The position numbers and the translations under genes are program-made. Of a DNA stretch of 64,000 nucleotides, positions 12,120 to 27,999 are shown piece after piece. The stretch spans positions 248,001 through 312,000 of the forward strand of contig NZ_VTUX01000004.1 of assembly GCF_008370495.1 (NCBI RefSeq), written 5' to 3'. Numbering within the stretch: the stretch's first letter is position 1; each line of letters opens with the position of its first letter. A model generated the notes under the pieces. It ran no database searches. It was not told the DNA's origin and was given only the letters and a program-made list of their open reading frames with translations. The stretch comes from Pseudohalioglobus sediminis. Its GTDB lineage: Bacteria > Pseudomonadota > Gammaproteobacteria > Pseudomonadales > Halieaceae.

Positions 12120-13823
12120 TCATTCTAGAACCAGCATGAGTCGCGCATTCATACCCTGGCTGATACCCTCGTCGCCGAAACGGTCCAGACTGATGTAGCG
12201 GTAATTGAGGTTGACGTTGAAGTAGGGGCTTAGCCACCAGTTCACGCCCAGCGACCAGATGTCCATCTCCCCCGCATCGCCCACCTCCGGGCCCGGCACT
12301 TCGCTCAGGTCGAGGTGGCTGAAACGGGCGCCAATTTCCCAGGCTCCCCAGCCGTTCTGGTCCACGGTCGCTGCAATCGGGATGCCCTTGAACAGGCCGG
12401 TGCGCCAGTTGTAGGGCCGGACTTCCCCGGTCAATATCCACGAGGCAGTGACGTGGTAGCCGTCCAGAGTCGGGTCGCCATAGGCATCGGATTCCAGGTC
12501 CATTTGCAGGTATTCGCTGTGTAACCAGAACGGCCCGGAACGCATTGACGCCTCCAGCGACCAGGTATCGATTCCCTCGACATCCAGCAGGCCGGTCTCC
12601 ACGAAGTTCGGCGCGTTGTTGAACTCCGGTACAGTACGCAGGAACCCGGGCTCCCTGGCACTGGAGTGGCGCGCACCGGCACCCAGGTGCAACAGGGAGT
12701 TTTCGTTTTTGGACACCAGGGGGACCCAGGTCAACCGGCCTACGAGCTGTGAACTGTTGTCGCCGGGTGAACTGGGCTGATCCTTGTCCAGCCAGTTGTT
12801 GAACACGCCGCCTGCGAAGGTCGCACGATCACCAGGGAGCGTGCCCGAGAAGACGGCTCCGATGTTGCGCGAAGGCAGCAGTGCATCAGAAACGGCCGCG
12901 CGCTCTTGCATGGGTAGGTTGGTCATCGGCATCAGTCTTTCCATAGAGATCGGTTCCTTCTGCTTGCCGATACTGAACCCGGCGCTCTGCCAAAGGGGAA
13001 TATCGAGCCTCAGGTCGAACAGGGTGAAATCATCCGAGTCGACCTGGTCGAAGCCCTTGTCAAACGCGTGGGTGGCTCCCGCGATCACCCAGACCCAGGG
13101 CTGTTCGAAGTTGAACGTGCCTACGGCGCCGAAGCGCAATGCGCGAATCTCACCGCCTTCAAACGCGGTCAGATCACCCACCTGGTCCATGCTGTTCCGG
13201 TCCTGGTCCAGCCAGCGCTGCCGGTCCAGCACCACCGCACCTGAAAAAAGCCCCGACACGTACTTGCCGTCGTAGCGGTTCCAGCGGCTCTTGTCCTGGT
13301 AGTTCAACGGCACTGCCAGTGGCGGGGGCGTATAGGCGAGCCAGCCCTGCTGCTTGCCCTCGTCGACACTTCCCCGACTGGTCGGAGAGTAGTTGTTCTT
13401 GAGCACTTCGCCCTGATGGATGGCAAACCTGGCATGGGTCCTGGTGTCGAGCAGAAGTTCGACGTTTTCCCGAGGGTCTCCGTCCAGGATCAGGAAGCTC
13501 GCGGGCTCACCCAGTGAGAGCGTACCCAGTACAACGCCTCCGGCGATGTCGTAGCTTGAATCGATTTTCTGGCTCGAGACCGCGTCCTGGGTAACGAGCT
13601 CCAGTTTGCCGTCTTCAATCAAAAGGTTGACCGTGACCGTAGCGCCAGCGTCGGCTGGTTCGATGAGACCGACGTTTCTCAGCAGAATCCTCTGTGCCTC
13701 CGCGGCATGGATCGGCAATGGCGCAAAGGCCTGTGCGCTCAGCGCGAAAGCCATGGCCAGCCTCAGTAGTCGGCTCGCCCGCCACCAACAAACCCCATGG
13801 TCATCTATGCCGCCAGCCTTCAC
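12120..13823 (-). CDS. OprO/OprP-like porin fused to a barrel-less amidohydrolase composite domain
   Basis: A 567-residue outer-membrane protein. After a signal peptide (ending near PIHAAEA) comes a ~110-residue domain. Its first part (RILLRNVGLIEPAD, LLIEDGKLELV) matches the N-terminal strands of amidohydrolases. Its second part (LGEPASFLILDGDPREN, ARFAIHQGEVLKN) matches their C-terminal strands. Between them the catalytic TIM barrel is missing and only a short linker remains. From about residue 160 it is a beta-barrel with aromatic and Gly-rich strands typical of phosphate-selective porin O/P proteins, ending in the outer-membrane LMLVLE strand. GTG start at 13823 overlaps the oprB-like stop by 4 bp, so translation is coupled. 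The substrate is unknown. Confidence 0.75.
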   Translation of the reverse strand: MKAGGIDDHGVCWWRASRLLRLAMAFALSAQAFAPLPIHAAEAQRILLRNVGLIEPADAGATVTVNLLIEDGKLELVTQDAVSSQKIDSSYDIAGGVVLGTLSLGEPASFLILDGDPRENVELLLDTRTHARFAIHQGEVLKNNYSPTSRGSVDEGKQQGWLAYTPPPLAVPLNYQDKSRWNRYDGKYVSGLFSGAVVLDRQRWLDQDRNSMDQVGDLTAFEGGEIRALRFGAVGTFNFEQPWVWVIAGATHAFDKGFDQVDSDDFTLFDLRLDIPLWQSAGFSIGKQKEPISMERLMPMTNLPMQERAAVSDALLPSRNIGAVFSGTLPGDRATFAGGVFNNWLDKDQPSSPGDNSSQLVGRLTWVPLVSKNENSLLHLGAGARHSSAREPGFLRTVPEFNNAPNFVETGLLDVEGIDTWSLEASMRSGPFWLHSEYLQMDLESDAYGDPTLDGYHVTASWILTGEVRPYNWRTGLFKGIPIAATVDQNGWGAWEIGARFSHLDLSEVPGPEVGDAGEMDIWSLGVNWWLSPYFNVNLNYRYISLDRFGDEGISQGMNARLMLVLE

Positions 13824-15097
13824 AGGGCGAACCGGGCGCGCAGTGACCAGACCGATATGCTGCTTTCGTCTGGATTGAGGGCCGGATCCTTGAGGTACTG
13901 GTAGTCCAGCGTCAGGGCGACCTGCTGGGTGAGTTGCCAGCGATAGAACAGTTCCAGCGTGTACTGGTCGTCCAGTCCGGGGCCGAAAGAATTCTCGTTG
14001 ACTTCACCCCAGTTGAAGGCAGCACCAATCAAATCTCCGGGTGCCTGAGTGGTAGGGTCCGGCCGATAGCCCAAGCCGACACTGACGCTCTTCTCAAGCA
14101 GAGACCCGCTGTCGTCCGTATAGCCGGCGCGCACAAAAGGCATGAACCGGTCGTCGTAATAGCGCGACCAGGAGAAGTTGGCGCCCCAACCGCTGGGGGC
14201 TCCCACCTCTTCTCGTGCATCGACATGCCACAAGGTCAGGTGCACGTTGTCCAAGGCAATCTTTGAGTGAGTTGAGGTGTGCCCGATCTCGATACTGCTG
14301 AAGTATTCGTTGTCGCCAAAAAAGGTGTCGAAGCCGTCGCTTATCTCGGTGGGATCGCCGTTACGATCAACCACGCTGCCAACCAGGTAGACGTTGTTGT
14401 CGAAGATATGCCCGGCCGCAACACCGAGGCTGGCATCGTTCGGCAGGTCGGTAGCGGCAGAGCCGGTGGAGAACGCCAGGTTCATAAAGTGCAGCCAGGG
14501 GCTGGCGAGCCCATAGACATCTACAAAGTCGGTCGCGTCCAGGAAGCCACCCAGCAGGACCGTGCGGCCGTTGTTCAGGCTCTGGCGCCAGTAAAGGTTG
14601 GTCCAGCGCGTGCCCTGGTCGCTGAAAGGCGGCTCGGTCAGCCCGGCGTAGCCCACGTTCCCCAGGTAGAAGTCGCTGGGCGCCGGCTCACCATAGGCAT
14701 GGCGGTGCTCGATCTTGTACACCAGGGCGCCGGAGTTGCCCTGCCCGTCACCGGTCAGGTTCCAACGCCCGTACACGCGCACCATCCCACCACTGGCGGC
14801 ATCATCCGCACCATTCAGCACATCGCTGGCGTGGACGGTGACGGCGGAGTAGTCGCCACCAATGCTGAACCCGTAGTCCTCTTCCAACCCGGCCTGCCAG
14901 CTCTGCACGGGTGCGAAGATCTCGGTTTCCAGGAGGCCGCCACGGTCGGTGCGATCCGTTTCAATAACTCGCTCTACCGAATCGGGACCGCCAAACTGTG
15001 GCGAGGGCTGAGCCTCCTCGTCCTGGGCATAGGCCCCAAAGGAAAGTCCCAGGATTAAGGGAAACGCGGCCAGGCGCTGCTCAAACTGCTGCATCAT
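13820..15097 (-). CDS. Carbohydrate-selective porin, OprB family
   Basis: 425-residue outer-membrane porin with signal peptide (LSFGAYAQ cleavage region). The N-terminal segment SWQAGLEEDYGFSIGGDYSAV is followed by repeated amphipathic strands and family-like blocks (RVYGRWNLTGDG, DATDFVDVYGLASPW, WHVDAREEVGAPSGWG). The C-terminus is an outer-membrane sorting strand ending RARFAL. It sits between an unknown barrel protein and the OprP-like fusion and overlaps the latter by 4 bp. Family members pass sugars or other small solutes. The partner amidohydrolase suggests a non-sugar substrate is possible. Confidence 0.82.
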   Translation of the reverse strand: MMQQFEQRLAAFPLILGLSFGAYAQDEEAQPSPQFGGPDSVERVIETDRTDRGGLLETEIFAPVQSWQAGLEEDYGFSIGGDYSAVTVHASDVLNGADDAASGGMVRVYGRWNLTGDGQGNSGALVYKIEHRHAYGEPAPSDFYLGNVGYAGLTEPPFSDQGTRWTNLYWRQSLNNGRTVLLGGFLDATDFVDVYGLASPWLHFMNLAFSTGSAATDLPNDASLGVAAGHIFDNNVYLVGSVVDRNGDPTEISDGFDTFFGDNEYFSSIEIGHTSTHSKIALDNVHLTLWHVDAREEVGAPSGWGANFSWSRYYDDRFMPFVRAGYTDDSGSLLEKSVSVGLGYRPDPTTQAPGDLIGAAFNWGEVNENSFGPGLDDQYTLELFYRWQLTQQVALTLDYQYLKDPALNPDESSISVWSLRARFAL

Positions 15098-15225: not shown

Positions 15226-16440
15226 TTACCTGAGCATCCTTGCAAAGATATTTTCTACCACCGGCGCCACATTGATACCGAACATCCACTTGGGCCCGAA
15301 GGCGTCTGCCTGGTCGACGAAGTAATTCACCTCGACGCCCAGCTTCCAAGGACGACCGTTCCAGATGACTGTCTTGCCCACAGTCAGGTTTAGCGGCAAG
15401 GTCCATTGGCTGTTCTCGTGGTCGTAGCTCATGATTGGGGCGCTGGCCACGTTCCAACCGCCACCCGGAAGATAAGTGGCAAAGGCATTAACCGTGGTGA
15501 GGCTGACATCGGCATCGCCGGAGCCTGCGACGTCGGTCTGATAAGTGACCAGCGCGCCCAGCACGTACTTACTGGTAAGCTTGCCAATCAGGAACTCCGG
15601 CCCGAGGCTCCAGCGGTCCGGGCCGAGTTCGTCCTCGGTTGCGGTGGGCAGGGTAGCGACGACACCCGCAGCCCACAAAAGTCCGCTTTCCGTGGTGCGG
15701 CCATAGGCAAGATCAAACGCAATGTCACCGAGACCGCTGGTGGAATCGAACTCGCCCTCGAGCGGATCGAAATAGGGCTGGTCGAGAATAATGGGCACGG
15801 CAGGTCGGAAAAACACCGTGGCCCCGTTGTCCAGCGGAAACGGAAATGCCGGCTGGTACAGGAGCAGGCTGCTGCTTTCGTCGTCCCCGCCGGGCAGGTC
15901 GCCGTCAAAGGTCCGGTACTGAAACTTGAAGGTCTGGCTGGCGAGCGGCGTGTTGGGATTGGCCAGCGACTTGGCCAGCTCCTCCGCCGAAGGCTCGGCA
16001 GCGCCGCCGGCGCCAGTGTTCCGGGCCGCGACTGCCATGGTTTGACCCGTTATTACCGTAAATTCCGCCGACTCCCCGGTGGCTTCATTGAAAGCCCGGA
16101 AGAGATTCGGCTGATCGGCAGCCTTCTCGATGCGGACGCACTGTTCCGCTTTGCCGACCGTGATGCAGATTCGATCGTTGCGAATTACCCAGGTTCGCTT
16201 GAAGGTATCACCCCAGGCCTCCAGCGTGCCGGTGCCGTCTGCGTTGTAATGGCCGGTGGCCTTCACGTTACCTCGTAACGTGCCCTGGAGTACGGTATCC
16301 GACACGAGGCTACGCAAGTTCTCCTCTCCGGTATAGGGCTGCCAATCCTGGGCACGCACACCGGTCGAAAAACCCGATGCCAGCGCAACCGCGACGATCA
16401 GTAATATTTTGCATACTCGGTATTGCAGTATCGATAACAA
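15226..16440 (-). CDS. Predicted outer-membrane beta-barrel protein (transporter-like)
   Basis: After a signal peptide ([22 protein letters not shown] region) comes a small domain of ~100 residues ([23 protein letters not shown], with a Cys pair in [11 protein letters not shown]). A ~260-residue beta-barrel follows, resembling MetA/phenol-degradation-type outer-membrane proteins ([42 protein letters not shown]). The frame is open to 16593 but would overlap the upstream gene. A TTG at 16440 with AGAGG eight bases before it gives a sensible 404-residue protein. It is in the same leftward cluster as the OprB and OprP-like porins. Confidence 0.65.
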
Positions 16441-16502
16441 AGAATGCGCCTCTTGTTCTTTTATCTCTGAGATCAGGTCTGTTGAATTTATGAATCGGGT
16501 AA

Positions 16503-17225
16503 TTAACGATGTTCGCTGTCTACTGTTGGCGTTTGAGCCGGCAGATTTCCCGTTGTTGTGACCTCGGAAACGTCCATCTTCCAGCGGCTCCACATCGGTG
16601 TCGATCCATCGGCAGAGGGGATGGTGTGCTGCGCCTCTTCAACAGATAGTCGCCCGCGCAGTGCGGCGGCAATGCACGGCCCTATTGGATCGGGCATCTT
16701 TTCTATCACTAGAAGAACGACCTGGTTGGGTGGCGGCGCCGGCAAATGCATGCAGACGCCTCTGCTGGGCACCAAGTAGGTAACCGACTCGCCGGTATCC
16801 AGAGATGTCGCGTTGAGAAGGTAGCCGGTAATTTCCACCTGATGGCCCTCGAGCTCGCTATTGGTGGCCAATGCCGCGTGCCGCCGCCTCGCTGCAACCA
16901 CGGCTCGCTGCGCGAGGATCCAGTTTGCGTCAAGTCCTTCCGATCGAAGATCTTCTGCAATTGCAGCCGCCCTTTGTTGCAGATTCTCTTCTTCCTCGGC
17001 AGTCATTTCACCGGAAATCAGTGATTGCTGTATTCTGGCGAGCGTCATCAACTTCAGCATTTGAGGCTGGGTCAGGTCACGATAAGGGTCCTCGTAAACC
17101 TGTGCTTCAGTGTCCATCAGCATCTGCCAGGACACTGGAGTAGCGGGCTGCACAGCAGAGGAAGCCGCCAGCAGCAATGTAACTACAGTGGCGCGAGCGA
17201 GCAGATCTACCAGGGGACTTGACAT
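16503..17225 (-). CDS. DUF3299 domain protein
   Basis: 240-residue exported protein with an N-terminal hydrophobic segment ([15 protein letters not shown]). A charged helical middle (residues ~60-105) is followed by the DUF3299 signature: [15 protein letters not shown], then [23 protein letters not shown]. Proteins of this domain family are usually periplasmic and found beside transport or lipoprotein genes; their function is not established. It lies between the amidohydrolase and the first barrel protein, all leftward, 62 bp from the latter. Confidence 0.72.
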
Positions 17226-17290: not shown

Positions 17291-18670
17291 TCAGTTCAGC
17301 GTGTTCTTGTAGATCACGCCGTCTTTCATGATTAAACGGATTGTTTCAGGGCTCTCCGGTCGGGGTTCTGCGTCGAACCACTTGTCCCCGGTTCCCACCA
17401 CGGAGAAATCCTCCAGCGGGTTGCCGTCGATCAACAGAATATCCGCATAGGCGCCTTCCTCGATCACGCCTAGCTTTCCTTCCCGGTAGGGGTTCATGAA
17501 ATCGCCAGACAGTGCCACAAGCTCTCCGCCTACTGAAGTCATGGTAACCAGCGAGGCATAGGGGCCGAAGAACTCATTATTCAGGTGTTTTTCGTAGGCG
17601 ATCTGAATATTGCAGGCTCCTACCGAGCCGACACAATCAGTCTGGAATGCACGCTTGACCGGGCATTTTTTCATGTTTGGAATGTAGTCGGCGAAGGTCT
17701 TGGATGCCGACTTGGCCTTCTCCAAACTTGCTGGCACATTGGCAACCGCGGGGATGTCGAGAAGGCCAGGATCGAATGCGGTCAGGTTGGTGGTGATGAA
17801 CGCGCCTTTCTTGTTCATCAATTTGGCCACTTCACAATCGAAGGAAAAACCATGCTCGATTGACTTCACCCCGGCATTCAGTGCTTTCATCATGGCCTCT
17901 TTTCTATAGGAGTGAGCCATCACATAACTGCCGTATTCATTGGCAACCTGTACAGCTGCCTCGATTTCCGATTGAGAGCCGGCGATTAATTGCCAGGGGT
18001 CAAAGGCAGATACGACGCCGCCGGACTGCATATATTTCAGCTGGGTGGCACCCATGCGGAAATTGTTCCTGCCGTACTTTTGAACATCCGCAACGCTGTC
18101 GACTTCCTGTGCCATGTTCAGACGACCGAAATTCGTCGACTCGCCCACCGGTGCAGTGTAGTTTGCAAAGTCGGCGTGGCCACCGCGAGTACTAAGGAAC
18201 GCCGCTGAAGGATAGTAGCGGGGTCCTACGACATCTCCCGCATCAATTGCCCGCCGCAGGCCGCCGTTGCCACCTCCGGCATCTCGTACCGTGGTGAAGC
18301 CCTGCATCAGGTACATCTCGGCCATTCGCGTACCGTGAATGGCGAAGTCTTCCCAGGTGGTTCCCGATTCCATCGCAGGAAGGCTCGGCCCCATCAGCAT
18401 CAAATGAGCATGGGCTTCAATAAAACCCGGAAGCAGGGTACGGCCGCCGCCATTGATAACAGTAGCGCCCGGCGCTTCTATCGAACCTCTGGCGATGGTC
18501 TTGATCTTGTTGCCGTCAACAAGGACGCTGGCGTTTTCCATGCGTTTGTTGCTAACGCCATCGAATATGTGAACGTTGGTGAATAACACCTGTTCCGCAG
18601 CGGCCGGCAATACAAGCGTCATGCCCATGGCAAAACACGCCAGGATCTTGGTAATCAGTTTATGAAACAT
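17291..18670 (-). CDS. Exported amidohydrolase (imidazolonepropionase/prolidase-like)
   Basis: 459-residue metal-dependent hydrolase with a signal peptide (VLPAAAEQ). The composite domain strands VLFTNVHIFDG and SVLVDGNKIKTIA are followed by metal ligands in GFIEAHAHLM (HxH) and ATQLKYMQSGG (Lys in the carboxylated-Lys position). Then come MAHSYRKEAM, SIEHG and a late Asp in FQTDCVG, with C-terminal strands ADILLIDGNPLEDF and MKDGVIYKN. The full metal set appears present. Relatives hydrolyse cyclic amides, dipeptides or lactones in the periplasm. First gene of the leftward porin cluster; GGGGAAG precedes the ATG. Divergent from an AraC regulator. Confidence 0.85.
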   Translation of the reverse strand: MFHKLITKILACFAMGMTLVLPAAAEQVLFTNVHIFDGVSNKRMENASVLVDGNKIKTIARGSIEAPGATVINGGGRTLLPGFIEAHAHLMLMGPSLPAMESGTTWEDFAIHGTRMAEMYLMQGFTTVRDAGGGNGGLRRAIDAGDVVGPRYYPSAAFLSTRGGHADFANYTAPVGESTNFGRLNMAQEVDSVADVQKYGRNNFRMGATQLKYMQSGGVVSAFDPWQLIAGSQSEIEAAVQVANEYGSYVMAHSYRKEAMMKALNAGVKSIEHGFSFDCEVAKLMNKKGAFITTNLTAFDPGLLDIPAVANVPASLEKAKSASKTFADYIPNMKKCPVKRAFQTDCVGSVGACNIQIAYEKHLNNEFFGPYASLVTMTSVGGELVALSGDFMNPYREGKLGVIEEGAYADILLIDGNPLEDFSVVGTGDKWFDAEPRPESPETIRLIMKDGVIYKNTLN

Positions 18671-18886: not shown

Positions 18887-19909
18887 GTGCCCCACTTCGC
18901 CAAGGACAAGTTTCAGCTGCCGATGGTCCGCCTTGACCTCGCCACCCTTTTCCTGGAGGCGGCACTCGCCGCCGGCAACGATGTCCGCAACGTACTGGCC
19001 CCCTTCGGCCTCACGCCGGCCCAATTCCGCGATCACAATCAGTTCGTCACGGCGCCCACCATGTACGACGTGGTCGAAGGCCTGGCTGAACTGACGGATG
19101 ATCCCCATTGCGGCGTTCACCTGGGGGAAGCGCTGGACCCACTGTCATGGTCGCCGCTGGCGGAAGCTACCCGCATGGCGCACTCCGTCGGCGACCTGCT
19201 ACTGCGTTTTTCCATCGGCGCCCACAAAGATGCCAGCTCCGTAGAGTTTCGGCTCGAAACCCGAGGCAGCCGCACCACCTTCGCTGAACATCGGCTCACC
19301 GATGGCGGGCGCTTGCCAAGGCATAATGACGGATTCGGGGCGGCTTACTTGATCGGGATCCTGAGGGCTGCACTCGGGCGTAACTGGGTGGGTAATCAAG
19401 TCATCGCCGGTGTCTGTGACCCAGCGGTATTCCCGCCGGATTATCATGGCATCAAGCTGGCGCAAACGGATACCCGCGGCTTCAGCGTTTCCTTCCCCAG
19501 CGCCTGGCTACTGCTGGAGCCGCAGTTGTATCAGCCCGCGGGCAAATCAGCCCCGGCACTGCCCCACAGCCAGGCACCGGAGGACACCCTGCTGGCCCTG
19601 CACTATATCCTGGAGGCTCACCTGCACGAGCCGCGGTTGGATACGGCGCGGGTGGCCCAACTGGCCGGCGTCAGCAAGCGCACCCTGGTACGCCGCCTGT
19701 CCGAACTGGATACCTCTTTCAAGTCCGAGTTGGACCAGTTACGCCTTATCCGGGCCAAGACCATGCTGCGCGAGGGCGCCCAGAGTATTACCCAGGTGGC
19801 TGCGAACCTGGGTTATACCGACGCATCGGTTTTCACACGCGCGTTCAAACGCTGGACTGGCCAAACGCCGCGCGCCTTCCAGGGGGATTTCAACCGGGAT
19901 GAGATTTAA
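18887..19909 (+). CDS. AraC-family regulator with arabinose-binding-type N-terminal domain
   Basis: 340-residue regulator. Residues ~20-210 form the ligand-sensing domain seen in many catabolic AraC proteins (APTMYDVVEGLAELTDDPHCGVHLGEAL). Two helix-turn-helix motifs occupy the last 100 residues (DTARVAQLAGVSKRTLVRRL; ITQVAANLGYTDASVFTRAF, RWTGQTPRAF). GTG at 18887 is used here; an in-frame ATG at 18923 is an alternative, since no strong ribosome-binding site decides. It is divergent from the amidohydrolase-porin cluster across 216 bp and so is the natural candidate regulator of it. It is convergent with the P450/ferredoxin pair. Confidence 0.85.
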   Translation: MPHFAKDKFQLPMVRLDLATLFLEAALAAGNDVRNVLAPFGLTPAQFRDHNQFVTAPTMYDVVEGLAELTDDPHCGVHLGEALDPLSWSPLAEATRMAHSVGDLLLRFSIGAHKDASSVEFRLETRGSRTTFAEHRLTDGGRLPRHNDGFGAAYLIGILRAALGRNWVGNQVIAGVCDPAVFPPDYHGIKLAQTDTRGFSVSFPSAWLLLEPQLYQPAGKSAPALPHSQAPEDTLLALHYILEAHLHEPRLDTARVAQLAGVSKRTLVRRLSELDTSFKSELDQLRLIRAKTMLREGAQSITQVAANLGYTDASVFTRAFKRWTGQTPRAFQGDFNRDEI

Positions 19910-20284: not shown

Positions 20285-20605
20285 TTATGCGTTCTCAGCG
20301 ACCGTCACCTTCAGGCCTTCCAGCGCTTCGGTAACGTCGATCTGGCAGGACAGGCGGCTGTTGTCGCGTCGCTCCGCAGCGGCGGAATCCAGCATGAGAT
20401 TCTCCAGCGAATTCGCTTCACCCACCCGGTCCATGCCATCGCCCTCTATGTAGCAGTGGCAGGTGGCGCAGGCACAGCCGCCGCCACAGTCGGCCAGGAT
20501 CCCGTCGATACCTGCATTCAACAGGGCACTCATCAGGGATTCGCCGTTGGGCGCCTCCACCACGTGGCTCGCTCCGCTGGCGTCGGTGACGTGAATCCTG
20601 GTCAT
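20285..20605 (-). CDS. [2Fe-2S] ferredoxin (P450 redox partner)
   Basis: 106-residue adrenodoxin/putidaredoxin-type ferredoxin. The cluster ligands are visible as CGGGCACATCHC (CxxxxxCxxC, with the first Cys at ADC) and the distal Cys in RLSCQI. Its ATG overlaps the stop of the P450 gene by 4 bp, so the two are translationally coupled and it very likely passes electrons to that P450. No ferredoxin reductase gene lies nearby, so the reductase must be supplied from elsewhere. Confidence 0.92.
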   Translation of the reverse strand: MTRIHVTDASGASHVVEAPNGESLMSALLNAGIDGILADCGGGCACATCHCYIEGDGMDRVGEANSLENLMLDSAAAERRDNSRLSCQIDVTEALEGLKVTVAENA

Positions 20606-21906
20606 GGCTTGTTTCCTTTAGGGTGCGCAATCACCTGCAGTGCCTTGATGCCGTGCACGAAACTGTGCTCGACGCGCTCGGGCTCAGCGACCACTTCCAG
20701 CCGCTCGAAGCGCTTGAGGATCTCCTCCCACACGATGCGCAGCTGGGCTTCGGCCACGCGATTGCCCATGCAGCGGTGGATGCCGAAACCGAAGGCCATG
20801 TGGCGACGGACATTGGGGCGGTCGATAATAAACTTGTCCGCGTCCGGGAAGAAAGACTCATCGCGATTGCCGGAGGCATACCACATCGCGATCTTGTCGC
20901 CTTTCTTGATCTGCTTGCCGCGGATCTCAACGTCCTCCTTCGCGGTTCTGCGCATATAGGACAGCGGCGTCTGGTAGCGGATGATCTCCGCCACTGCGGA
21001 GGGAATCAGTGACTGGTCATCCTTGATTTTCTGGAACTCCGCGGGGTTCTCGTGCATGAACAGCACGCCGGCCGACATGGAGTTGCGGGTGGTGTCATTG
21101 CCGCCGACTATCAGCAGCATCAGGTTGCCCAGCAGTTCCACGCCCTCCAGGTCGGCGGTAGCCGGATTATTGGCCAGCAGGGAAATGAAGTCCTGGCTCT
21201 CGTTGCCCTCGAACTGGCGCTCCTTGAACAGCGCGGTGAAGGTCTGCAGGCACTCGCCCAGGTGGTTCAGGCGATCCTCGATGGTCAGGCCCATGAGGAT
21301 GGGTGGGGTGGTGATGATTTCGGACCAGAAGGTAAGTTTGCGGCGCTCCTCGAAAGGGAAGTCAAACAGGGTCGCCAACATGCGGGTGGTCAGTTCGATA
21401 GAGACCTTTTCGACCCAGTTGAAGGGCGTGCCCGTGGGCAGCTCGTCCAGCACTTCCACCGTGCGTTTGCGAATGAGTTGATCGAGATCCTTCAGTCGCA
21501 CCGGGCCGACGGCCGGCAGCACCGCGCCGCGTTGTTCGTCGTGCCTGGGCGGGTCCATGGCAATGAACATGGGGGCCCGCTCCTCGCCCAGTAGCTCATC
21601 GAACAGGGCGATGGACGGTTCAGAGGAGAACCGCTCGAAATCAGTGTCCACCGCCATGATGTCTTCATAGCGCGTCAGCGACCAGTAGGGGCCGATTTCC
21701 GGGTTCTTGTCGTGGTAGTGCACCGGATTTTCCTGGCGCAGGCGCTTGAAGTACTCATGGTGTTTCTGTGCCTGGAAAATGGCCCCCGTGGCGAGGTCGA
21801 TGTCTTCCAGTGGCAGCGCCCAGGGGTCCGCCTCGGGGGTGGTGGTGGGGGATCGGTAGAATTCTTCCGGGTTCTGATCCGCGTTCGTTTCCGGAGCATT
21901 TTCCAT
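20602..21906 (-). CDS. Cytochrome P450, CYP153-like (probable alkane/fatty acyl terminal hydroxylase)
   Basis: Bacterial class I P450 of 434 residues. Visible are the I-helix oxygen-activation motif VGGNDTTRNSM, the ExxR of EIIRYQTP, MRRTAKEDVEIRGK, WYASGNRD and the haem loop FGFGIHRCMGN with the axial Cys. These segments closely follow those I know from CYP153 alkane hydroxylases, but the subfamily call is from memory. ATG at 21906 has GAGAGG nine bases upstream; the TTG at 21915 is less likely. Followed by its ferredoxin with a 4-bp overlap. The product is soluble. Confidence 0.85.
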   Translation of the reverse strand: MENAPETNADQNPEEFYRSPTTTPEADPWALPLEDIDLATGAIFQAQKHHEYFKRLRQENPVHYHDKNPEIGPYWSLTRYEDIMAVDTDFERFSSEPSIALFDELLGEERAPMFIAMDPPRHDEQRGAVLPAVGPVRLKDLDQLIRKRTVEVLDELPTGTPFNWVEKVSIELTTRMLATLFDFPFEERRKLTFWSEIITTPPILMGLTIEDRLNHLGECLQTFTALFKERQFEGNESQDFISLLANNPATADLEGVELLGNLMLLIVGGNDTTRNSMSAGVLFMHENPAEFQKIKDDQSLIPSAVAEIIRYQTPLSYMRRTAKEDVEIRGKQIKKGDKIAMWYASGNRDESFFPDADKFIIDRPNVRRHMAFGFGIHRCMGNRVAEAQLRIVWEEILKRFERLEVVAEPERVEHSFVHGIKALQVIAHPKGNKP

Positions 21907-22056
21907 GACTGCCAACCTCTCTTGTTGCCACTGTTAACATTGTGATCCCGGTACTATACAACAGCGCAGTATTTTGGTGCAGGTTTACGCGAAAGTTGGC
22001 GGGATGAGGTGTTATAGGCCTCGAGTGTTGTCAACTTTTGCTGCTACCGGCTTGCG

Positions 22057-22087
22057 CGGTTCTTGTAGGTTTGTAACCCGAGAACCG
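22057..22087. promoter_or_regulatory. Inverted repeat in P450/sulfatase divergent region
   Basis: CGGTTCT (22057-22063) and AGAACCG (22081-22087) form a 7-bp perfect inverted repeat around a 17-bp centre, with a central near-palindrome GGTTTGTAACC. It lies 65 bp before the sulfatase start in the 245-bp region shared with the P450 promoter. It could be an operator, but no regulator is tied to it. Confidence 0.3.
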
Positions 22088-22151
22088 GGCACATCCCTGG
22101 ATTAGGTCTATGCTTACGAACACGACCCTAATCGACACCGGAGAAGTGTAA

Positions 22152-23696
22152 ATGATGTTATCTGTAGACCGTGTTCTACTGCGGGTGATCCTGGTTATAG
22201 CCTGCTGTTTCGTGTCCCTCACAGGGCGCGCGGCAGAGAAGCCAAATATCCTTGTGATCTGGGGGGATGACATAGGCTGGTTCAATATCAGTGCCTACAA
22301 CCACGGCATGATGGGATATAAGACGCCGAATATTGATCGTATTGCAAATGAGGGGGCCATGTTTACGGACTGGTACGGGCAGCAGAGCTGTACCGCAGGG
22401 CGAGCCGCTTTTATCACTGGCCAGTCGCCTATCCGAACGGGACTAACCAAAGTGGGCCTGCCCGGTGCCAAGGAGGGTATGAGTGAAAAAGACCCTACTA
22501 TCGCTGGGCTTTTAAAAAACCATGGTTACGTGACAGGGCAGTTCGGCAAGAACCATTTAGGTGATCGTGATGAGCACCTGCCGACCAATCACGGTTTCGA
22601 CGAGTTTTTTGGCAACCTTTACCACTTGAATGCAGAAGATGAACCAGAAAACGTCGACTACCCGAAAGATCCAGAGTTCCGCAAAGAGTTTGGCCCCCGT
22701 GGTGTGATTAAATCCAGCGCCGACGGAAAGATAGAAGATACGGGGCCACTCACGATGAAGCGCATGGAGACTGTTGATGACGAAGCCACCGCGGCTGCAC
22801 TCAAGTTTATTGACAAGGCGAACAAGGATGGAAAGCCCTTCTTCGTGTGGTGGAACTCTACACGTATGCACGTGTGGACTCGGCTCAAGCCTGAATCTGA
22901 GGGCGTAACGGGTCTTGGCATTTATCCTGATGGAATGGTTGAGCATGACGGTCATGTCGGACAGCTATTGGATAAGTTGGACGAACTGGGCATCGCAGAC
23001 AACACCATCGTGATGTACTCCACAGATAATGGCGCGGAGGCGATGACCTGGCCAGACGGCGGTACGATTCCTTTCAGGGGTGAGAAAAACACAAACTGGG
23101 AGGGAGGTTACCGGGTGCCAATGGCCATGAGGTGGCCAGGCGTCATTCAGCCGGGCACGGTTTCCAATGAGGTTGGCGCCCACGAGGACATGTTGCCGAC
23201 GTTCATGGCTGCGGTAGGCGAACCCGAGATGAAATCCAAGTTGCTCAAGGGCCACCGTGCCATGGGTCGCCGCTACAAAGTGCACCTCGATGGTTACAAC
23301 ATGATGCCCTATCTGAGCGGTGATGAGGCGGAAAGCCCTCGTTCGGATTTCCTGTACTGGACGGATGACGGCGATATAGCGGCTCTGCGCTATAACAATT
23401 GGAAGATTGTTTTCATGGAGCAGCGCGGCCATGGCTTTGATGTTTGGCAGGAACCTTTTGTGCCGCTCCGTTTTCCGAAGCTCTTCAACCTGCGCACCGA
23501 TCCATTCGAGCGCGCAGATCATGAAGGCATGGGTTACCAGCGCTGGCGGGCAGAGCGCATGTTCGCACTGGCTCCTGCACAGGCCTACGTCGCAAAGTGG
23601 CTGAAGTCATTCCAGGATTTTCCGCCGCGACAGAAACCCGGTTCCTTCAGTCTGCAGAATGCGATGGATGAAATCTCATCCGGGAGCCCGCAGTAG
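22152..23696 (+). CDS. Exported sulfatase (arylsulfatase family)
   Basis: 514-residue type I sulfatase with a signal peptide (ending GRAAEKPN). After NILVIWGDDIGWFN (metal-binding Asp pair) comes the formylglycine site SCTAGRAAFITGQ. Here Cys is the residue converted to formylglycine, in a C-x-A-x-R form of the usual C-x-P-x-R. Further signatures are GQFGKNHLGD, FFVWWNSTRMHV and MYSTDNGAE with the later metal Asp-Asn. A formylglycine-generating enzyme or anaerobic equivalent must act on it and is not in the window. The substrate cannot be assigned. Confidence 0.9.
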   Translation: MMLSVDRVLLRVILVIACCFVSLTGRAAEKPNILVIWGDDIGWFNISAYNHGMMGYKTPNIDRIANEGAMFTDWYGQQSCTAGRAAFITGQSPIRTGLTKVGLPGAKEGMSEKDPTIAGLLKNHGYVTGQFGKNHLGDRDEHLPTNHGFDEFFGNLYHLNAEDEPENVDYPKDPEFRKEFGPRGVIKSSADGKIEDTGPLTMKRMETVDDEATAAALKFIDKANKDGKPFFVWWNSTRMHVWTRLKPESEGVTGLGIYPDGMVEHDGHVGQLLDKLDELGIADNTIVMYSTDNGAEAMTWPDGGTIPFRGEKNTNWEGGYRVPMAMRWPGVIQPGTVSNEVGAHEDMLPTFMAAVGEPEMKSKLLKGHRAMGRRYKVHLDGYNMMPYLSGDEAESPRSDFLYWTDDGDIAALRYNNWKIVFMEQRGHGFDVWQEPFVPLRFPKLFNLRTDPFERADHEGMGYQRWRAERMFALAPAQAYVAKWLKSFQDFPPRQKPGSFSLQNAMDEISSGSPQ

Positions 23697-24064
23697 TCAG
23701 CTGGCGAATCGACTGCTGTACATCGCCCGGCCAGGATGTATGGCGACTTTGCCAAGGTATTCATTGCTGACGTGGGACACCGACATTCATTAAACCGATA
23801 TTGCGGAGAGGGTTTCAGTAAGAGGATGTCGATACACCGTCCAGTGCTGCGAGCAACACTTTTGCTCCAGGGTCGTCATCCTCATGCTGCGCAGCGACGC
23901 TCAGCAAGGCAGGACCTACGGAAATGGAGGTGTCGCGGCGCAGGCCGCTGTAATGTGCTTCATCGAAGTTCACGTAGCCGGGTTTCGCGATGAAGCGGTG
24001 ATGCCACAGGCGCTGGTGATCACCAGCTGCATCGCCACATGCACGAACTTATGCAGACAACGCA
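23697..24064 (+). other. Intergenic region with a degenerate repeat-E copy (about 23777-23830)
   Basis: No gene is supported. The stretch CACCGACATTCATTAAACCG, then GATATTGCGGAGAG, followed by an AAGAGG and ATG, parallels the hairpin-plus-ribosome-binding-site repeat at 30041-30143 and 38503-38602. The right hairpin arm has decayed. A short frame from 23827 has no family likeness. Confidence 0.35.
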
Positions 24065-24604
24065 TCACGGTGTGTGCAGGGCCATGTCAACGTCGAGATC
24101 AACGTCCACGTGTTTTACGACCCCGGCAAGTTGCTCGGGATCGACATCACCAAGGATATTGATGAACACAGCTTCCTCTTCATCTACTGCCATCACCGTG
24201 AGACCGTGCACGATGTTGTCGCCGTACTTGATATAAATATCGACCTGCTGGTCAGTCTCGCGAACGCGTACGATCTGCTCCCATTCCAGCGCCTGCAGCG
24301 ATTCGTTAATCGCTGTCATGCGCGCGTTCGCCGGTGTTGTGTCACCTGCCGTGTTATACACGTGGACGCGGATAGACTCCAGATTGCGTAGCGCTTCCTG
24401 GGCCATGGGATCGTCGTGCTTAAAGTGGCTGATCAAGGTCAGCAGCGAGCTGCCGAGATCGATCATAACCCGCGGCTGGCCATAGTCCCCGGAAAGGCTA
24501 CTGAAGTCCACGTAACCGGGCCGGTCTGCAAGGGGTTCTTCGGCCGCAAACGCGGGTGCGCTGATGAGCGTTAGTGTTAACAGGAGCGTTGATATTTTCA
24601 TCAC
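24065..24604 (-). CDS. DUF4252 domain protein, periplasmic
   Basis: 179-residue protein with a clear signal peptide (MMKISTLLLTLTLISAPAFA). The mature part matches the DUF4252 pattern: VMIDLGSSLLTLISHFK, RNLESIRVHVYN, then QVDIYIKYGDNIVHGLTVMAVDEEEAVFINILGDVDPEQLAGV. It ends with an Asp-rich segment. Function of the family is unknown; in other bacteria such genes lie near RNA polymerase sigma/anti-sigma genes, which I do not see here. Monocistronic. Confidence 0.75.
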   Translation of the reverse strand: MMKISTLLLTLTLISAPAFAAEEPLADRPGYVDFSSLSGDYGQPRVMIDLGSSLLTLISHFKHDDPMAQEALRNLESIRVHVYNTAGDTTPANARMTAINESLQALEWEQIVRVRETDQQVDIYIKYGDNIVHGLTVMAVDEEEAVFINILGDVDPEQLAGVVKHVDVDLDVDMALHTP

Positions 24605-24769
24605 AGGGGTTCCAGTCTGGTTGTTGAGACTGAAGCATGACGCGTCTTGCGCGTACTTGCCTGCGTTACACGACAGATAGAGTGGCTGGTGCGGTGAACT
24701 GCGAAATAGCGACCTATGCAGAGCCGCCGCCTTCGGCCTGCCTTGCTCAAGAACGCTCCACCGCGACCG

Positions 24770-26020
24770 TTACAGATCAAATGCGTCTACATAAGACTGC
24801 ATGCGCTCTCGAATCTCGCCTGCTTCAAGCCCGAAACCATCCGGACTGTGCTCGTGGCGATGACGCGGCGCGCTTGACGACTGTTCCAGGTAATTTGCTA
24901 GGGCATTTTGCGCAGTCTCATCAAACTCCATGTCAAAGGCCGCGTAGACACCGCGGATCGCATCCACAGGGCTCTCCCGCATGTCAGTCTGCAGCACATC
25001 GCAGTAGCGGTCGGCTGGCAGGGTGTCGCGCACACGCATCGCATCTTCCCACCCCGGTGGCCAGAACCCGTTGAGGACTTCCCTGCCTATATCGTGAGCA
25101 TCAACGGCATCACTGAAGATGGCGCGCGTGTAGGAGTACAAACTGCAAAGAGACGACAGGGATTTGGCGGGATCACGATGCGTGAAAACAAACTTCGCAT
25201 TCGGGAATACCTTGAGAATGGTTCTTATATTCAGGGTATGCGCCGGGTCCTTGAGCACAAAGTGCTCTCCGGCAGGCCTGTAGTGCTGGATAATCTTTAG
25301 CTGTTGCAAATAGCCCTGGTAGGCAATAGTTGCGTCCTGCTTCTGCAACCAGGCAACGTACTCAGGCACGCGATACTGAATATCAAACTGCAGCGTCCGA
25401 AATTCATTCATAAACAGGGCCACGCACTCTTCCGGCGACTCCGCCGTCATCGGGTGTATCGCCTGGTAATTCGGCGATATCTGGTCCATTTGGCGCAGCA
25501 TTTTATCGAGCCGCGCAATTCTTGTGTCTGGGCCCGCCGCCGGCGGAATCGGTTCATAACTTTCCCAGTAGGGAATCGTGCGATGGCGCGGGTCCTGTGC
25601 GAGTAGGGTGTGCAGGTAGGTTGTGCCTGTGCGCGGCATGCCGATGATGAAAATAGGCGGCGGCAGTACCGTGTCTAGGATGGACGGCTGGGACTTGATA
25701 AGCGATTGAATGCGCAGGTGATTGCGAGCCAAACGCGTGGAATCATCAGACGCGGAGAAGCGGCCAACCAGGTTCAATCGGGCACTGCTGTTGATGGAAT
25801 CAACCAGCTGCTGTAACGCCGCCACCGCGTCGCTGTGCGGCTCTACTAACGCCGCACCCGTGCCAGATGCAATAGCCTCACTGGCCGCTGCCCACCAGCG
25901 GGTCGCATTGGGCCGCGCATAAGCAGGCGCTAATATGCCGGCCATGTTCAAAGCTCGCATGGAGAAACTGCGTGTTTGCCTGGCGGTAGAAAACTGCTGC
26001 AAATGTAGGGTTTTACTCAT
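24770..26020 (-). CDS. Sulfotransferase family protein
   Basis: 416-residue PAPS-dependent sulfotransferase-like protein. The 5'-phosphosulfate loop is FIIGMPRTGTTYLHTLLAQ near residue 135, and the 3'-phosphate-binding stretch is FTHRDPAKSLSSLCSLYSY. The ATG at 26020 is preferred over a TTG at 26041 that opens the frame. It follows the SDR gene at 26124-26921 on the same strand with a ~100-bp gap. Bacterial homologues of this length often lie in steroid or xenobiotic gene clusters, but the acceptor is not known. Confidence 0.8.
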   Translation of the reverse strand: MSKTLHLQQFSTARQTRSFSMRALNMAGILAPAYARPNATRWWAAASEAIASGTGAALVEPHSDAVAALQQLVDSINSSARLNLVGRFSASDDSTRLARNHLRIQSLIKSQPSILDTVLPPPIFIIGMPRTGTTYLHTLLAQDPRHRTIPYWESYEPIPPAAGPDTRIARLDKMLRQMDQISPNYQAIHPMTAESPEECVALFMNEFRTLQFDIQYRVPEYVAWLQKQDATIAYQGYLQQLKIIQHYRPAGEHFVLKDPAHTLNIRTILKVFPNAKFVFTHRDPAKSLSSLCSLYSYTRAIFSDAVDAHDIGREVLNGFWPPGWEDAMRVRDTLPADRYCDVLQTDMRESPVDAIRGVYAAFDMEFDETAQNALANYLEQSSSAPRHRHEHSPDGFGLEAGEIRERMQSYVDAFDL

Positions 26021-26123
26021 GACAGGCTCTGCCGCATTCAAGGTAGCCCATGATCACCCATTGTAGGCCGCTGGCACTAGCTTAAATTCTTTAGGTCGAC
26101 CGGCTCTGCACTGGTTTGACGTC

Positions 26124-26921
26124 CTAACCCATGCCACCCCATGCCCGCGGCATTTGCATATTGAGGCGCTCCATGCCGCCGTTAACGCCAAGGATCTCGC
26201 CGGTAACATAAGAGGCCGCTGGTGAGCACAGGTACAGGGCACCCAGGGCGATATCCTCCACCTCTCCCAGGCGTCCCATGGGCGTGAGTTCTTCCATGGT
26301 TTTTTCCACGTCGCCGGTCAATACGGTATTAAGGGCGTCGGTTCGGGTCGAACCCACGGCGATAGCATTGACCCGCACGCGCGGCGCGAATTCCTGCGCC
26401 AGTTCCCGGGTGAGCAGGGAAAGCGCACCCTTGGCCGTGCCATAAGCAGCAAAGCAGGGCGTGGGCTTGTGGCCTGCAATGGAAGAGATATTAAGAATAC
26501 AGCCATCGGCACGCTCAGCGAGCTGCGGTGCACACAGGCGCGACAGTTCATAGGCGGTGGTGACATTGAAACGCATGGCCGCCTCGAATTCACGTGCACT
26601 GGTTTGCAGCATGGGTTTGGGCGGAAAGCCGCCGGCGTTGTTGACCAGGATATCGATGCGGCCAAAACGCGCCATGGTTGCCGTCACCAGCGCTTGCAAT
26701 TGATCAAAATCCAGTACGTCGGTGGGCACGCACAGTGTCTCGCTGCCCAGTTCCGCGAGTTCTGCTGCCAACGCCTCCAGGTCGCTCGCGGTCCTGGCGG
26801 CCAGCACCACGTTGGCGCCGGCCTCGGCGAAGCCTCGGGCAATCGCCGCCCCGATCCCTTTGCCGGCGCCGGTAATGATCGCCACCCTGCCATCCAGGCT
26901 GAACTTGTCTAATAACGCCAT
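26124..26921 (-). CDS. Short-chain dehydrogenase/reductase (SDR)
   Basis: 265-residue classical SDR. All key elements are present: TGAGKGIGAAIA, NNAGG, catalytic Ser in NISSIAG, YGTAK (Tyr and Lys), and C-terminal GVNGGMERL. The ATG at 26921 has GGAGG eight bases upstream; the frame opens at 26942. It probably oxidises a secondary alcohol or reduces a ketone with NAD(P). It could form an operon with the sulfotransferase gene downstream. Confidence 0.88.
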   Translation of the reverse strand: MALLDKFSLDGRVAIITGAGKGIGAAIARGFAEAGANVVLAARTASDLEALAAELAELGSETLCVPTDVLDFDQLQALVTATMARFGRIDILVNNAGGFPPKPMLQTSAREFEAAMRFNVTTAYELSRLCAPQLAERADGCILNISSIAGHKPTPCFAAYGTAKGALSLLTRELAQEFAPRVRVNAIAVGSTRTDALNTVLTGDVEKTMEELTPMGRLGEVEDIALGALYLCSPAASYVTGEILGVNGGMERLNMQMPRAWGGMG

Positions 26922-27000
26922 CCTATATCCTCCAACTGGCATTGCGTTGCCTGAAAATCAGCGTGTTTCACCAGTGCTTATCATCGCCAGTCGTACCGGT

Positions 27001-27073
27001 ATTGCCAAGTAAAGTCTCAGATATCGATAGCATAGTCGGATGCTTAAGGCCGTTATAAGTGGCTGAGATATAG
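27001..27073 (+). repeat. ~200-bp repeat family, left-end fragment D
   Basis: TTGCCAAGTAAAGTCTCAGA, TATCGATAGCATAGTCGG and a later TTATAAGTGGCTGAGAT follow the left third of copy B at 29831 (TGCCAAGTTGACTGCCCAAA, TCGGTAGAATTGG, TATAAATGGCGCTGAT). More diverged than A-C; tentative. Confidence 0.3.
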
Positions 27074-27082
27074 GAAAACGAC

Positions 27083-27104
27083 TGGCCCGGAAGGACTTGA
27101 ACGC
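27083..27104 (-). other. tRNA 3'-end-like fragment
   Basis: On the minus strand this reads CGTTCAAGTCCTTCCGGGCC, differing at only a few positions from the T-loop/acceptor segment of the CAT tRNA at 39426-39502. No anticodon or D arm is present. It lies 10 bp after repeat fragment D. Confidence 0.3.
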
Positions 27105-27176
27105 CTCTGCACAGTTTGTGAAGAATGCAAGAGGCGGTGAGGTTTAAGCCACCACCACCGCCGTCCTGACGCTGAC

Positions 27177-27971
27177 CTAGAACAAGGAGTGATGCTGCCC
27201 GCCATCAATCACAATATTCTGACCCACTATAAAGCGTGACAATGGACTGCACAGCAGGGCCGCCATCGGCGCCATGTCGGCTGCGTCGGCGACGAAGCCG
27301 GCAGGGATTTTGTTGTTTTCCAGGAAGTGGTTCATGGCCACGTCTTCCTTTGGCTCAAGGCCGAAAGCGTCCGCATAGGTCAGCAGCAGTTCACTGGCAC
27401 CTTCAGTGGCGAACATGCCGGGAAGAATATTGTTAATACACACGCCGTACTGGGCGACCTCGCGCGAGACGCTGGCGGTGTAGTTGATCAGTGCGGAGCG
27501 CGCGGGGCCTGACATCAAGCGCCAGATCATGGGGTTCTTGGCAGAGAACGTGGCGATGTTGACGATACGGCCGAAGCCACGCTCCTTCATGCCAGGAATG
27601 TAGTGACGCATGATCTCGATCGGTGCGATCAGGGCTGTTTCCACCGAGTCGCGCCACATTTCCGGCGTGACCTTGAGGAAGTCGCCATTGGGAGCGGGGG
27701 GTTTGATGGTAATGGCCAGGATATCCGGGTCGGGGCAGGCCTTGAACAGGGCCTGGCGACCTTCTTCTTTGGAAGAGTCGGCGACCACGGGTGTGACGCT
27801 GGTGCCGTATTGCTCGCTGATCTCTTTCGCCGCATTGAGCAGGCGCTCTTCGCGGCGCGCTGTGATCACCAAATCGGCGCCGGCTTCCGCCAACCGCTCG
27901 GCGGTAGCGCGGCCCATACCGGCGCTGCCGCCAGCCATAATTGCTTTCTTGCCCTTGATTTGAAGGTCCAT
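27177..27971 (-). CDS. Divergent SDR-fold protein lacking the canonical catalytic triad
   Basis: 264-residue SDR fold with a modified cofactor loop AGGSAGMGRATA. The NNAG motif is replaced by TIKPPAPNG, the catalytic Ser region reads NIATFSA, and the Tyr-x-x-x-Lys position reads SGPARSAL, i.e. Ser and Arg. Framework segments (GRIVNIA, INNILPG, GQNIVIDGGQH) are intact, so it is not a decayed gene. It may be a non-redox SDR, use other residues, or be a partner subunit. GAGGAG precedes the ATG. It is 28 bp after the HCCA-isomerase-like gene in the same direction. Confidence 0.78.
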   Translation of the reverse strand: MDLQIKGKKAIMAGGSAGMGRATAERLAEAGADLVITARREERLLNAAKEISEQYGTSVTPVVADSSKEEGRQALFKACPDPDILAITIKPPAPNGDFLKVTPEMWRDSVETALIAPIEIMRHYIPGMKERGFGRIVNIATFSAKNPMIWRLMSGPARSALINYTASVSREVAQYGVCINNILPGMFATEGASELLLTYADAFGLEPKEDVAMNHFLENNKIPAGFVADAADMAPMAALLCSPLSRFIVGQNIVIDGGQHHSLF

Positions 27972-27999
27972 GTGGTCGCTCCTCTAGCGGTTCCTGTGA

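What the first reader, a model, noticed from the sequence alone, without database searches (positions are those of the whole stretch)
12120..13823. OprP-like porin fused to an amidohydrolase composite domain whose catalytic barrel is gone
Residues ~45-155 line up with both ends of the exported amidohydrolase encoded 3.5 kb upstream. RILLRNVGLIEP/LLIEDGKLELV matches the N-terminal strands, and FLILDGDPREN/FAIHQGEVLKN matches the C-terminal strands. The ~300-residue metal-binding barrel between them is replaced by a short linker. A domain normally wrapped around an enzyme now caps a porin. It could be a binding or docking module for the amidohydrolase or its substrate.
Basis: partly seen in the sequence, partly recalled or inferred. 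Interest (0 to 1): 0.72.

Follow-up and report, generated by a model that had tools for sequence, protein, structure and literature searches.

The report
Porin carrying a gutted enzyme domain
A bacterial outer-membrane pore protein carries, at its front end, what looks like the outer shell of an enzyme whose catalytic core has been cut out; this unusual fusion recurs in several related bacteria and may help couple uptake of a compound to its breakdown.

Summary
The 567-aa protein at 12120-13823 (-) reads as a signal peptide, a ~105-residue domain (44-148), a linker and an OprO/OprP-type barrel (Porin_O_P, E 8.7e-31). Residues 44-148 resemble the two ends of an exported prolidase-like amidohydrolase joined with the ~310-residue barrel missing. 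The domain profile finds amidohydrolases in the PDB (5 of 6 hits at E<=10; best 3mkv, E 9.1e-5), in two pieces meeting at one point. A barrel-deleted model of five amidohydrolases finds 10 of 11 fusions in single alignments spanning the junction. The C-terminal half is clear on its own, the N-terminal half weaker. Single-sequence Pfam and NCBIfam scans miss the domain.
It is no assembly artefact: 11 copies in 9 genomes share the junction. It was rare in the samples: 7 of 140 genomes of the family, 6 of 390 of the order, 1 of 369 of the class.
Function is inferred: a channel with a periplasmic, non-catalytic amidohydrolase-derived module, probably linked to periplasmic C-N hydrolases. Docking is plausible but untested. 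Structure prediction could not be completed.

The parts
12120..13823 (-). fusion gene, 567 aa (GTG start; overlaps the upstream porin gene by 4 bp)
13695..13823 (-). signal peptide and short leader, residues 1-43 (by inspection; exact start codon uncertain)
   Evidence: inference
13530..13694 (-). N-terminal half of the barrel-less amidohydrolase composite domain, residues 44-98
13527..13532 (-). junction where the ~310-residue barrel is missing (about residues 98/99, in GGVVLG)
13380..13529 (-). C-terminal half of the composite domain, residues 99-148, ending about where the enzymes themselves end
13257..13379 (-). linker, residues 149-189, with conserved GWLAYxPPPLAVPLxYxD...WN
12123..13256 (-). 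Porin_O_P (OprO/OprP-type) beta barrel, about residues 190-567; Pfam match 214-542
13820..15097 (-). OprB-type porin, gene directly upstream
15226..16593 (-). probable outer-membrane barrel protein with a small N-terminal soluble domain (by inspection; best Pfam match DUF5640 at E 0.17 is not significant)
16503..17225 (-). DUF3299 protein, apparently exported (by inspection)
17291..18670 (-). exported, intact-looking prolidase-like amidohydrolase
18887..19909 (+). AraC-type regulator, divergent from the cluster (matches are below curated cut-offs)

Best explanation
It is an outer-membrane diffusion channel of the OprO/OprP fold whose periplasmic N-terminus is the remnant of a whole exported prolidase-like amidohydrolase: signal peptide, N-terminal strands and C-terminal strands kept, catalytic barrel deleted in frame, stop codon replaced by a linker into the porin. 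Shown by sequence: the two-part homology (C-half strong, N-half weaker), the fixed junction, recurrence, purifying selection, absence of any HxH metal motif. Inferred: the two strand groups refold as an uninterrupted beta-sandwich at the periplasmic mouth; it is not an enzyme; it serves as a structural or binding module that places periplasmic C-N hydrolases or their substrate next to the channel exit, so that an amide- or peptide-like compound entering through the pore is hydrolysed at once. I give ~0.9 to the architecture, ~0.8 to 'periplasmic, non-catalytic, functional domain' and ~0.3 to enzyme docking specifically.
For: Reciprocal profile tests. In 4 of 7 fetched amidohydrolase ORFs the C-half match runs to the last residues: L070 410-456 of 456, L035 405-451 of 452, L060 405-451 of 451, L059 491-537 of 537; in the other three it is shorter. 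All 11 copies align through the junction without a gap, have no HxH in their first 180 residues and 0-2 gap characters in the domain; whole-domain dN/dS was 0.07-0.35 in the 9 of 18 compared pairs with a finite dS (dS 1.4-3.3, near saturation). The fusion gene overlaps the OprB-type porin gene by 4 bp and is co-directional with the amidohydrolase. L054 (Litorirhabdus contig) has fusion, OprB-type porin, a short 15226-type ORF, amidohydrolase, AraC-type regulator and sulfatase in that order. Amidohydrolase co-occurrence 6 of 7 against 19 of 133 family genomes, Fisher p 1.2e-4, or 4 of 5 against 19 of 133, p 0.0027, without the two genomes that supplied the model; kinship not corrected. The cluster amidohydrolase keeps H87, H89, K212, H253, H273, D345 in 4 of 4 aligned copies (their role is recalled).
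Against: The N-half is weak when tested alone and the profile-profile comparison placed only the C-half. Only 3 of 11 loci show a prolidase-like amidohydrolase in the stretch read; L036 has an Amidohydro_2 protein and L052 an arginase-family protein (of the neighbours in L037-L040, L053 and L055 only one, L038:6765-8339, was scanned with Pfam). Different enzymes at different loci argue against one specific dock. The domain diverges faster than the barrel (mean identity 0.41 against 0.54).
Confidence: 0.6

Rival explanations
1. The domain only assists the porin itself: a periplasmic plug, gate, trimerisation or envelope anchor, with no contact to any amidohydrolase. Its origin from an amidohydrolase is an accident of gene neighbourhood.
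For: 8 of 11 loci show no prolidase-like amidohydrolase in the ~8-10 kb read on each side (one of them, L055, is cut short by its contig end). Other Porin_O_P-like proteins fetched here have other N-terminal extensions, by inspection coiled-coil-like in L022 and L024 and Pro-rich in L034. The linker next to the barrel is better conserved than the domain (mean identity 0.53 against 0.41).
Against: Co-occurrence with prolidase-like amidohydrolases in the family and shared gene sets in the window, the own paralogue and L054.
Confidence: 0.4
2. The domain is the primitive, uninterrupted form of the amidohydrolase beta-sandwich, from before the barrel was inserted, rather than a secondary deletion.
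For: It is uninterrupted, and intact enzymes carry the barrel between the same two halves.
Against: In the samples it was confined to one order and it resembles one enzyme group, down to the C-terminal KN(T)L. No tree was made.
Confidence: 0.05
3. Assembly artefact, frameshift product or decaying pseudogene.
For: None found for this gene; a short C-terminal amidohydrolase fragment does exist in another genome (L082).
Against: 11 open full-length copies with one shared junction in 9 genomes and signs of purifying selection. The public contigs L003 and L004 have the same lengths and ORFs as those of G666 and G704 and are not counted again.
Confidence: 0.01
4. Resemblance by convergence: an unrelated small periplasmic beta domain.
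For: Generic family scans do not name the domain; profile-profile comparison placed one half only; the N-half alone is weak.
Against: Both halves match in order at a fixed junction in several enzymes, each half puts amidohydrolases first and the reciprocal model finds 10 of 11 copies.
Confidence: 0.04

Closest known systems
OprO/OprP phosphate-selective porins (Pfam PF07396; PDB 4rjw, 4rjx)
   Same: Barrel region matches (Pfam E 8.7e-31; 4rjw E 9e-10 over 419-549).
   Different: An amidohydrolase-derived N-terminal domain and its linker precede the barrel. Net charge of the barrel part (K+R minus D+E) is -10 to -25 in the 11 copies; selectivity is unknown.
Prolidase-like amidohydrolases (PDB 3mkv, 3feq, 2qs8; the label cog1228 is recalled)
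   Same: Both ends of the composite domain in order in 3mkv and 2qs8, the C-terminal end in 3feq; these are also among the best PDB relatives of the cluster amidohydrolase.
   Different: The whole catalytic barrel is absent and no HxH motif is present.
PgaA (outer-membrane porin whose TPR domain is described as a scaffold that modulates PgaB-dependent processing; PMC9384988, title and start of abstract seen in a search listing)
   Same: Works-like comparison: a porin with a periplasmic domain that coordinates an enzyme.
   Different: Different scaffold; different barrel family and export rather than uptake (recalled); no relationship claimed.

Membership tests
Porin_O_P (OprO/OprP-type porins) | Porin_O_P beta-barrel domain above the curated cut-off | tested here: met
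   107.9 bits against a cut-off of 20.9; 9 of 9 members of alignment A1 match at E<=1 (the two most divergent copies, L050 and L051, were not scanned)
Porin_O_P (OprO/OprP-type porins) | phosphate or polyphosphate selectivity | not testable with these tools
   no transport data
Amidohydrolase superfamily enzyme | composite beta domain made of both chain ends | tested here: met
   by sequence profile only, the N-terminal half weakly; structure not predicted
Amidohydrolase superfamily enzyme | (beta/alpha)8 catalytic barrel between the two halves | tested here: not met
   the two pieces meet at profile position 56 where 3mkv has ~310 residues between them
Amidohydrolase superfamily enzyme | HxH and other metal ligands | tested here: not met
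   no HxH in the first 180 residues of 11 of 11 copies
Scaffolded porin-enzyme pair (works-like) | physical binding of porin domain and periplasmic enzyme | not testable with these tools
   gene context and co-occurrence only

The most novel reading that the evidence does not exclude
An enzyme lost its catalytic core and its leftover shell was recruited as an adaptor that plugs periplasmic amidohydrolases onto an outer-membrane channel, making an uptake-and-hydrolysis complex; a case of enzyme-to-scaffold conversion by internal deletion plus fusion.
Probability: 0.27. Interest if true: 0.78.

Novelty: new variant of a known kind. Interest (0 to 1): 0.5.

Why it matters
Porins are usually thought of as bare barrels or barrels with coiled coils (general knowledge). 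This one has an enzyme's shell with the active site excised, kept under selection in several lineages. It looks like a natural example of domain surgery (removal of an inserted barrel, leaving a presumably stable sandwich) and gives a testable handle on whether bacteria couple outer-membrane channels to periplasmic hydrolases. The domain is not reported by single-sequence Pfam or NCBIfam scans, so such proteins are probably filed simply as porins.

Tried and rejected
A longer frame in G070 (L034, 897 aa) was considered as an intact amidohydrolase-porin precursor; its N-terminal part is Pro/acidic-rich by inspection, not an amidohydrolase. No intact (barrel-containing) amidohydrolase-porin fusion was found, within these limits: the class sample (369 genomes) with the domain-plus-linker profile gave only the two own-genome copies at E<=1e-5. 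A phylum sample (249 genomes, up to 19 candidates scored per genome) with a model of joined ends gave only those two as matches over 2-103 of 103; L083 (3-94) proved to be an intact amidohydrolase; some other rows overlapped the junction in part (for example 37-101, 36-102, 34-100, in open frames of 423, 420 and 500 aa) and were not read. G019 (L082) is a 161-aa C-terminal amidohydrolase fragment, not a fusion. In plasmids 20 records match, none over 80% of the query.
Literature: eight searches of an open-access library. Six looked for the fusion or for porins with extra domains, two for the enzyme family. Listings seen: 15 of 39, 15 of 21, 0 of 0, 1 of 1, 1 of 1, 8 of 32, and 10 of 15, 8 of 20 papers, as titles and abstract starts, plus passages of PMC13081902. 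None named this architecture. That paper reports a secreted amidohydrolase that deconjugates taurine-conjugated bile salts; no link to this cluster was tested. Substrate was not resolved: P450, sulfatase, sulfotransferase and dehydrogenase genes nearby hint at a hydrophobic conjugate, as a guess only.

Full report
What is there. The gene at 12120-13823 on the minus strand encodes 567 residues. Pfam finds one significant domain, Porin_O_P, at 214-542 (E 8.7e-31), and the nearest solved structures by sequence are Porin O entries 4rjw and 4rjx (E 9e-10). Residues 44-148 receive no useful Pfam or NCBIfam match, either in the whole protein or when the domain is scanned alone for nine members.

Test of the observation. 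I aligned the N-domains of nine homologues (A3) and searched the PDB sequences with the profile: six hits at E<=10, five of them amidohydrolase-superfamily enzymes, two of these below 0.05. The best, 3mkv (E 9.1e-5), aligns in two pieces, profile 3-56 with chain 6-58 and 56-103 with 369-416; 4whb and 2qs8 also show both pieces with the second starting at profile 56; 3feq shows the second piece only, and 1gkr is listed with the first. The remaining hit, an aminoglycoside phosphotransferase at E 0.58, looks like chance, and 1gkr (0.59) is no better. The first piece in 3mkv is not significant alone.

With an 11-member profile, both pieces are found in 4 of 7 fetched amidohydrolase ORFs and the second piece only in 3; in 4 of 7 the second piece runs to the last residues of the enzyme (L070 410-456 of 456; L035 405-451 of 452; L060 405-451 of 451; L059 491-537 of 537). 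In the reverse direction, a model of five amidohydrolases with the barrel removed finds ten of eleven fusion proteins as best hits among 269 ORFs, E 5.5e-12 to 0.012, the window copy at 2.0e-8, each as one alignment spanning the junction; seven amidohydrolase rows were dropped before counting; the next hit has E 0.82 and the best reversed-sequence hit 0.64. The most divergent copy, L050, is missed.

Halves taken apart: the fusions' C-half model ranks all 7 amidohydrolase ORFs first (E 5e-7 to 0.25, next 4.3); their N-half model ranks 2 of 7 first, at the right place (E 0.0052 and 0.0061, next 6.0). The enzymes' N-half model reaches 3e-5 for the own-genome paralogue and 0.0058 for the window copy, with a best reversed hit of 0.037, so it is weak alone; their C-half model reaches 0.00079 and 0.013 for the same two, best reversed hit 2.4. 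A profile-profile comparison with four cluster amidohydrolases placed only the C-half in register (E 2.2e-5). On balance the homology of both halves is well supported by sequence, mainly by the C-half and by the joint test; the fold is not shown.

The particular enzyme. In the own genome the domain profile (E<=10) matched the two fusions and four other places, of which the best (E 6.3e-4) is the amidohydrolase L035:316-1674 near the own paralogue; the window's amidohydrolase was not listed. The domain is therefore of the same kind as that enzyme, not demonstrably derived from it.

Is it real biology? Eleven distinct copies were read in nine genomes: the window and its own-genome paralogue (57% identical), and copies in G134, G241, G201, G068, G142, G772, G666 and G704 (two). 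The public contigs L003 (titled uncultured Halieaceae) and L004 (Candidatus Litorirhabdus singularis) have the same lengths and ORFs as the G666 and G704 contigs and are not counted again. All eleven align through the junction without a gap. None has an HxH in its first 180 residues; the domain has 0-2 gap characters per copy; whole-domain dN/dS was 0.07-0.35 in the 9 of 18 compared pairs with a finite dS, with dS near saturation. So it is neither an artefact nor a decaying remnant.

How rare. In samples: 7 of 140 genomes of the family, 6 of 390 of the order (6 of 293 in the earlier sample), 1 of 369 of the class (the own genome). In 398 genomes of the phylum at E<=1e-40, three matched: the own genome over the whole protein and two others over the barrel only. 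These are samples with a loose first look, not censuses.

Surroundings. In the window the gene overlaps by 4 bp an OprB-type porin gene, preceded upstream by a second outer-membrane-like protein (15226-16593, by inspection), a DUF3299 protein, the amidohydrolase and a divergent AraC-type regulator. L054 (Litorirhabdus) has fusion, OprB-type porin, a 119-aa 15226-type ORF, amidohydrolase, AraC-type regulator and sulfatase in this order; it lacks the DUF3299 gene and the P450 and ferredoxin genes that lie between regulator and sulfatase in the window. The own paralogue (L035) lies near two prolidase-like amidohydrolases, an M19 dipeptidase, an OprB-type porin and an AraC-type regulator. By BLAST clustering the OprB-type porin accompanies 6 of 11 fusion loci (in L055 as a fragment at the contig end) and the amidohydrolase 3 of 11. 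L052 has an arginase-family protein and L036 an Amidohydro_2 protein nearby. Of the neighbours in L037-L040, L053 and L055 only L038:6765-8339 was scanned with Pfam (a di-haem oxidoreductase).

Co-occurrence. A prolidase-like amidohydrolase (model A6, E<=1e-100, one threshold tried) is present in 25 of 140 family genomes: 6 of the 7 with the fusion and 19 of the 133 without it (Fisher p 1.2e-4; 5 of 6 against 15 of 72 among genomes at least 90% complete, p 0.0037; 5 of 5 against 7 of 23 genera, p 0.008). The model was built from enzymes of two fusion-bearing genomes; without these two it is 4 of 5 against 19 of 133, p 0.0027. None of these is corrected for kinship. The exception, G772, carries the copy most unlike the window's (34% over residues 44-262).

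Mechanism. The simplest history is that a copy of an exported amidohydrolase upstream of a porin gene lost its barrel in frame and its stop codon, leaving signal peptide, N-terminal strands, C-terminal strands, linker and porin. The order of genes in the window fits this but does not prove it. By general knowledge of porins both barrel ends face the periplasm, so the domain should hang at the inner mouth of the channel. Without the barrel it cannot catalyse the amidohydrolase reaction. Either it helps the porin itself or it positions a periplasmic hydrolase or substrate. The cluster and the co-occurrence favour some functional tie with C-N hydrolases; the variety of enzymes and the loci without one weigh against one fixed partner. 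I rate docking at about 0.3.

The enzyme partner. The cluster amidohydrolase is closest in the PDB to 3feq (named prolidase; E 4.3e-57) and 3mkv (E 6.7e-52), and keeps H87, H89, K212, H253, H273 and D345 in 4 of 4 aligned copies; that these are the metal and catalytic residues, and the label cog1228 for the group, are recalled. Its substrate is unknown; dipeptides and N-acyl amino acids are reasonable first tests.

Verdict. It is a new architecture for a known porin family, which I did not find named in eight paper searches of an open-access library (listings only, capped as told under tried and rejected; most subscription papers are not held).

Noticed in passing
window 15226-16593 and L054:11864-12223: The neighbouring outer-membrane-like protein seems to have a small N-terminal soluble domain before a barrel-like part; on the Litorirhabdus contig the corresponding ORF is only 119 aa, seemingly the N-terminal domain without the barrel.
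   Followed up: no
L035 (own genome, G000:C23:78000-97000): A second, rearranged set with two prolidase-like amidohydrolases, an M19 membrane dipeptidase, an OprB-type porin, an AraC-type regulator and the paralogous fusion.
   Followed up: partly
window 20285-28644: Ferredoxin, cytochrome P450, sulfatase, sulfotransferase and short-chain dehydrogenases next to the cluster; P450 genes also lie near the fusions in L035 and L036, hinting at breakdown of a hydrophobic conjugate.
   Followed up: partly
L082:1736-2221: A 161-aa C-terminal fragment of an amidohydrolase in another genome of the order, apparently a truncated gene.
   Followed up: partly
L083:109-1791: A genome of the same phylum but not the same class holds an intact amidohydrolase that by eye looks very similar to the one in the window, perhaps by horizontal transfer.
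   Followed up: no
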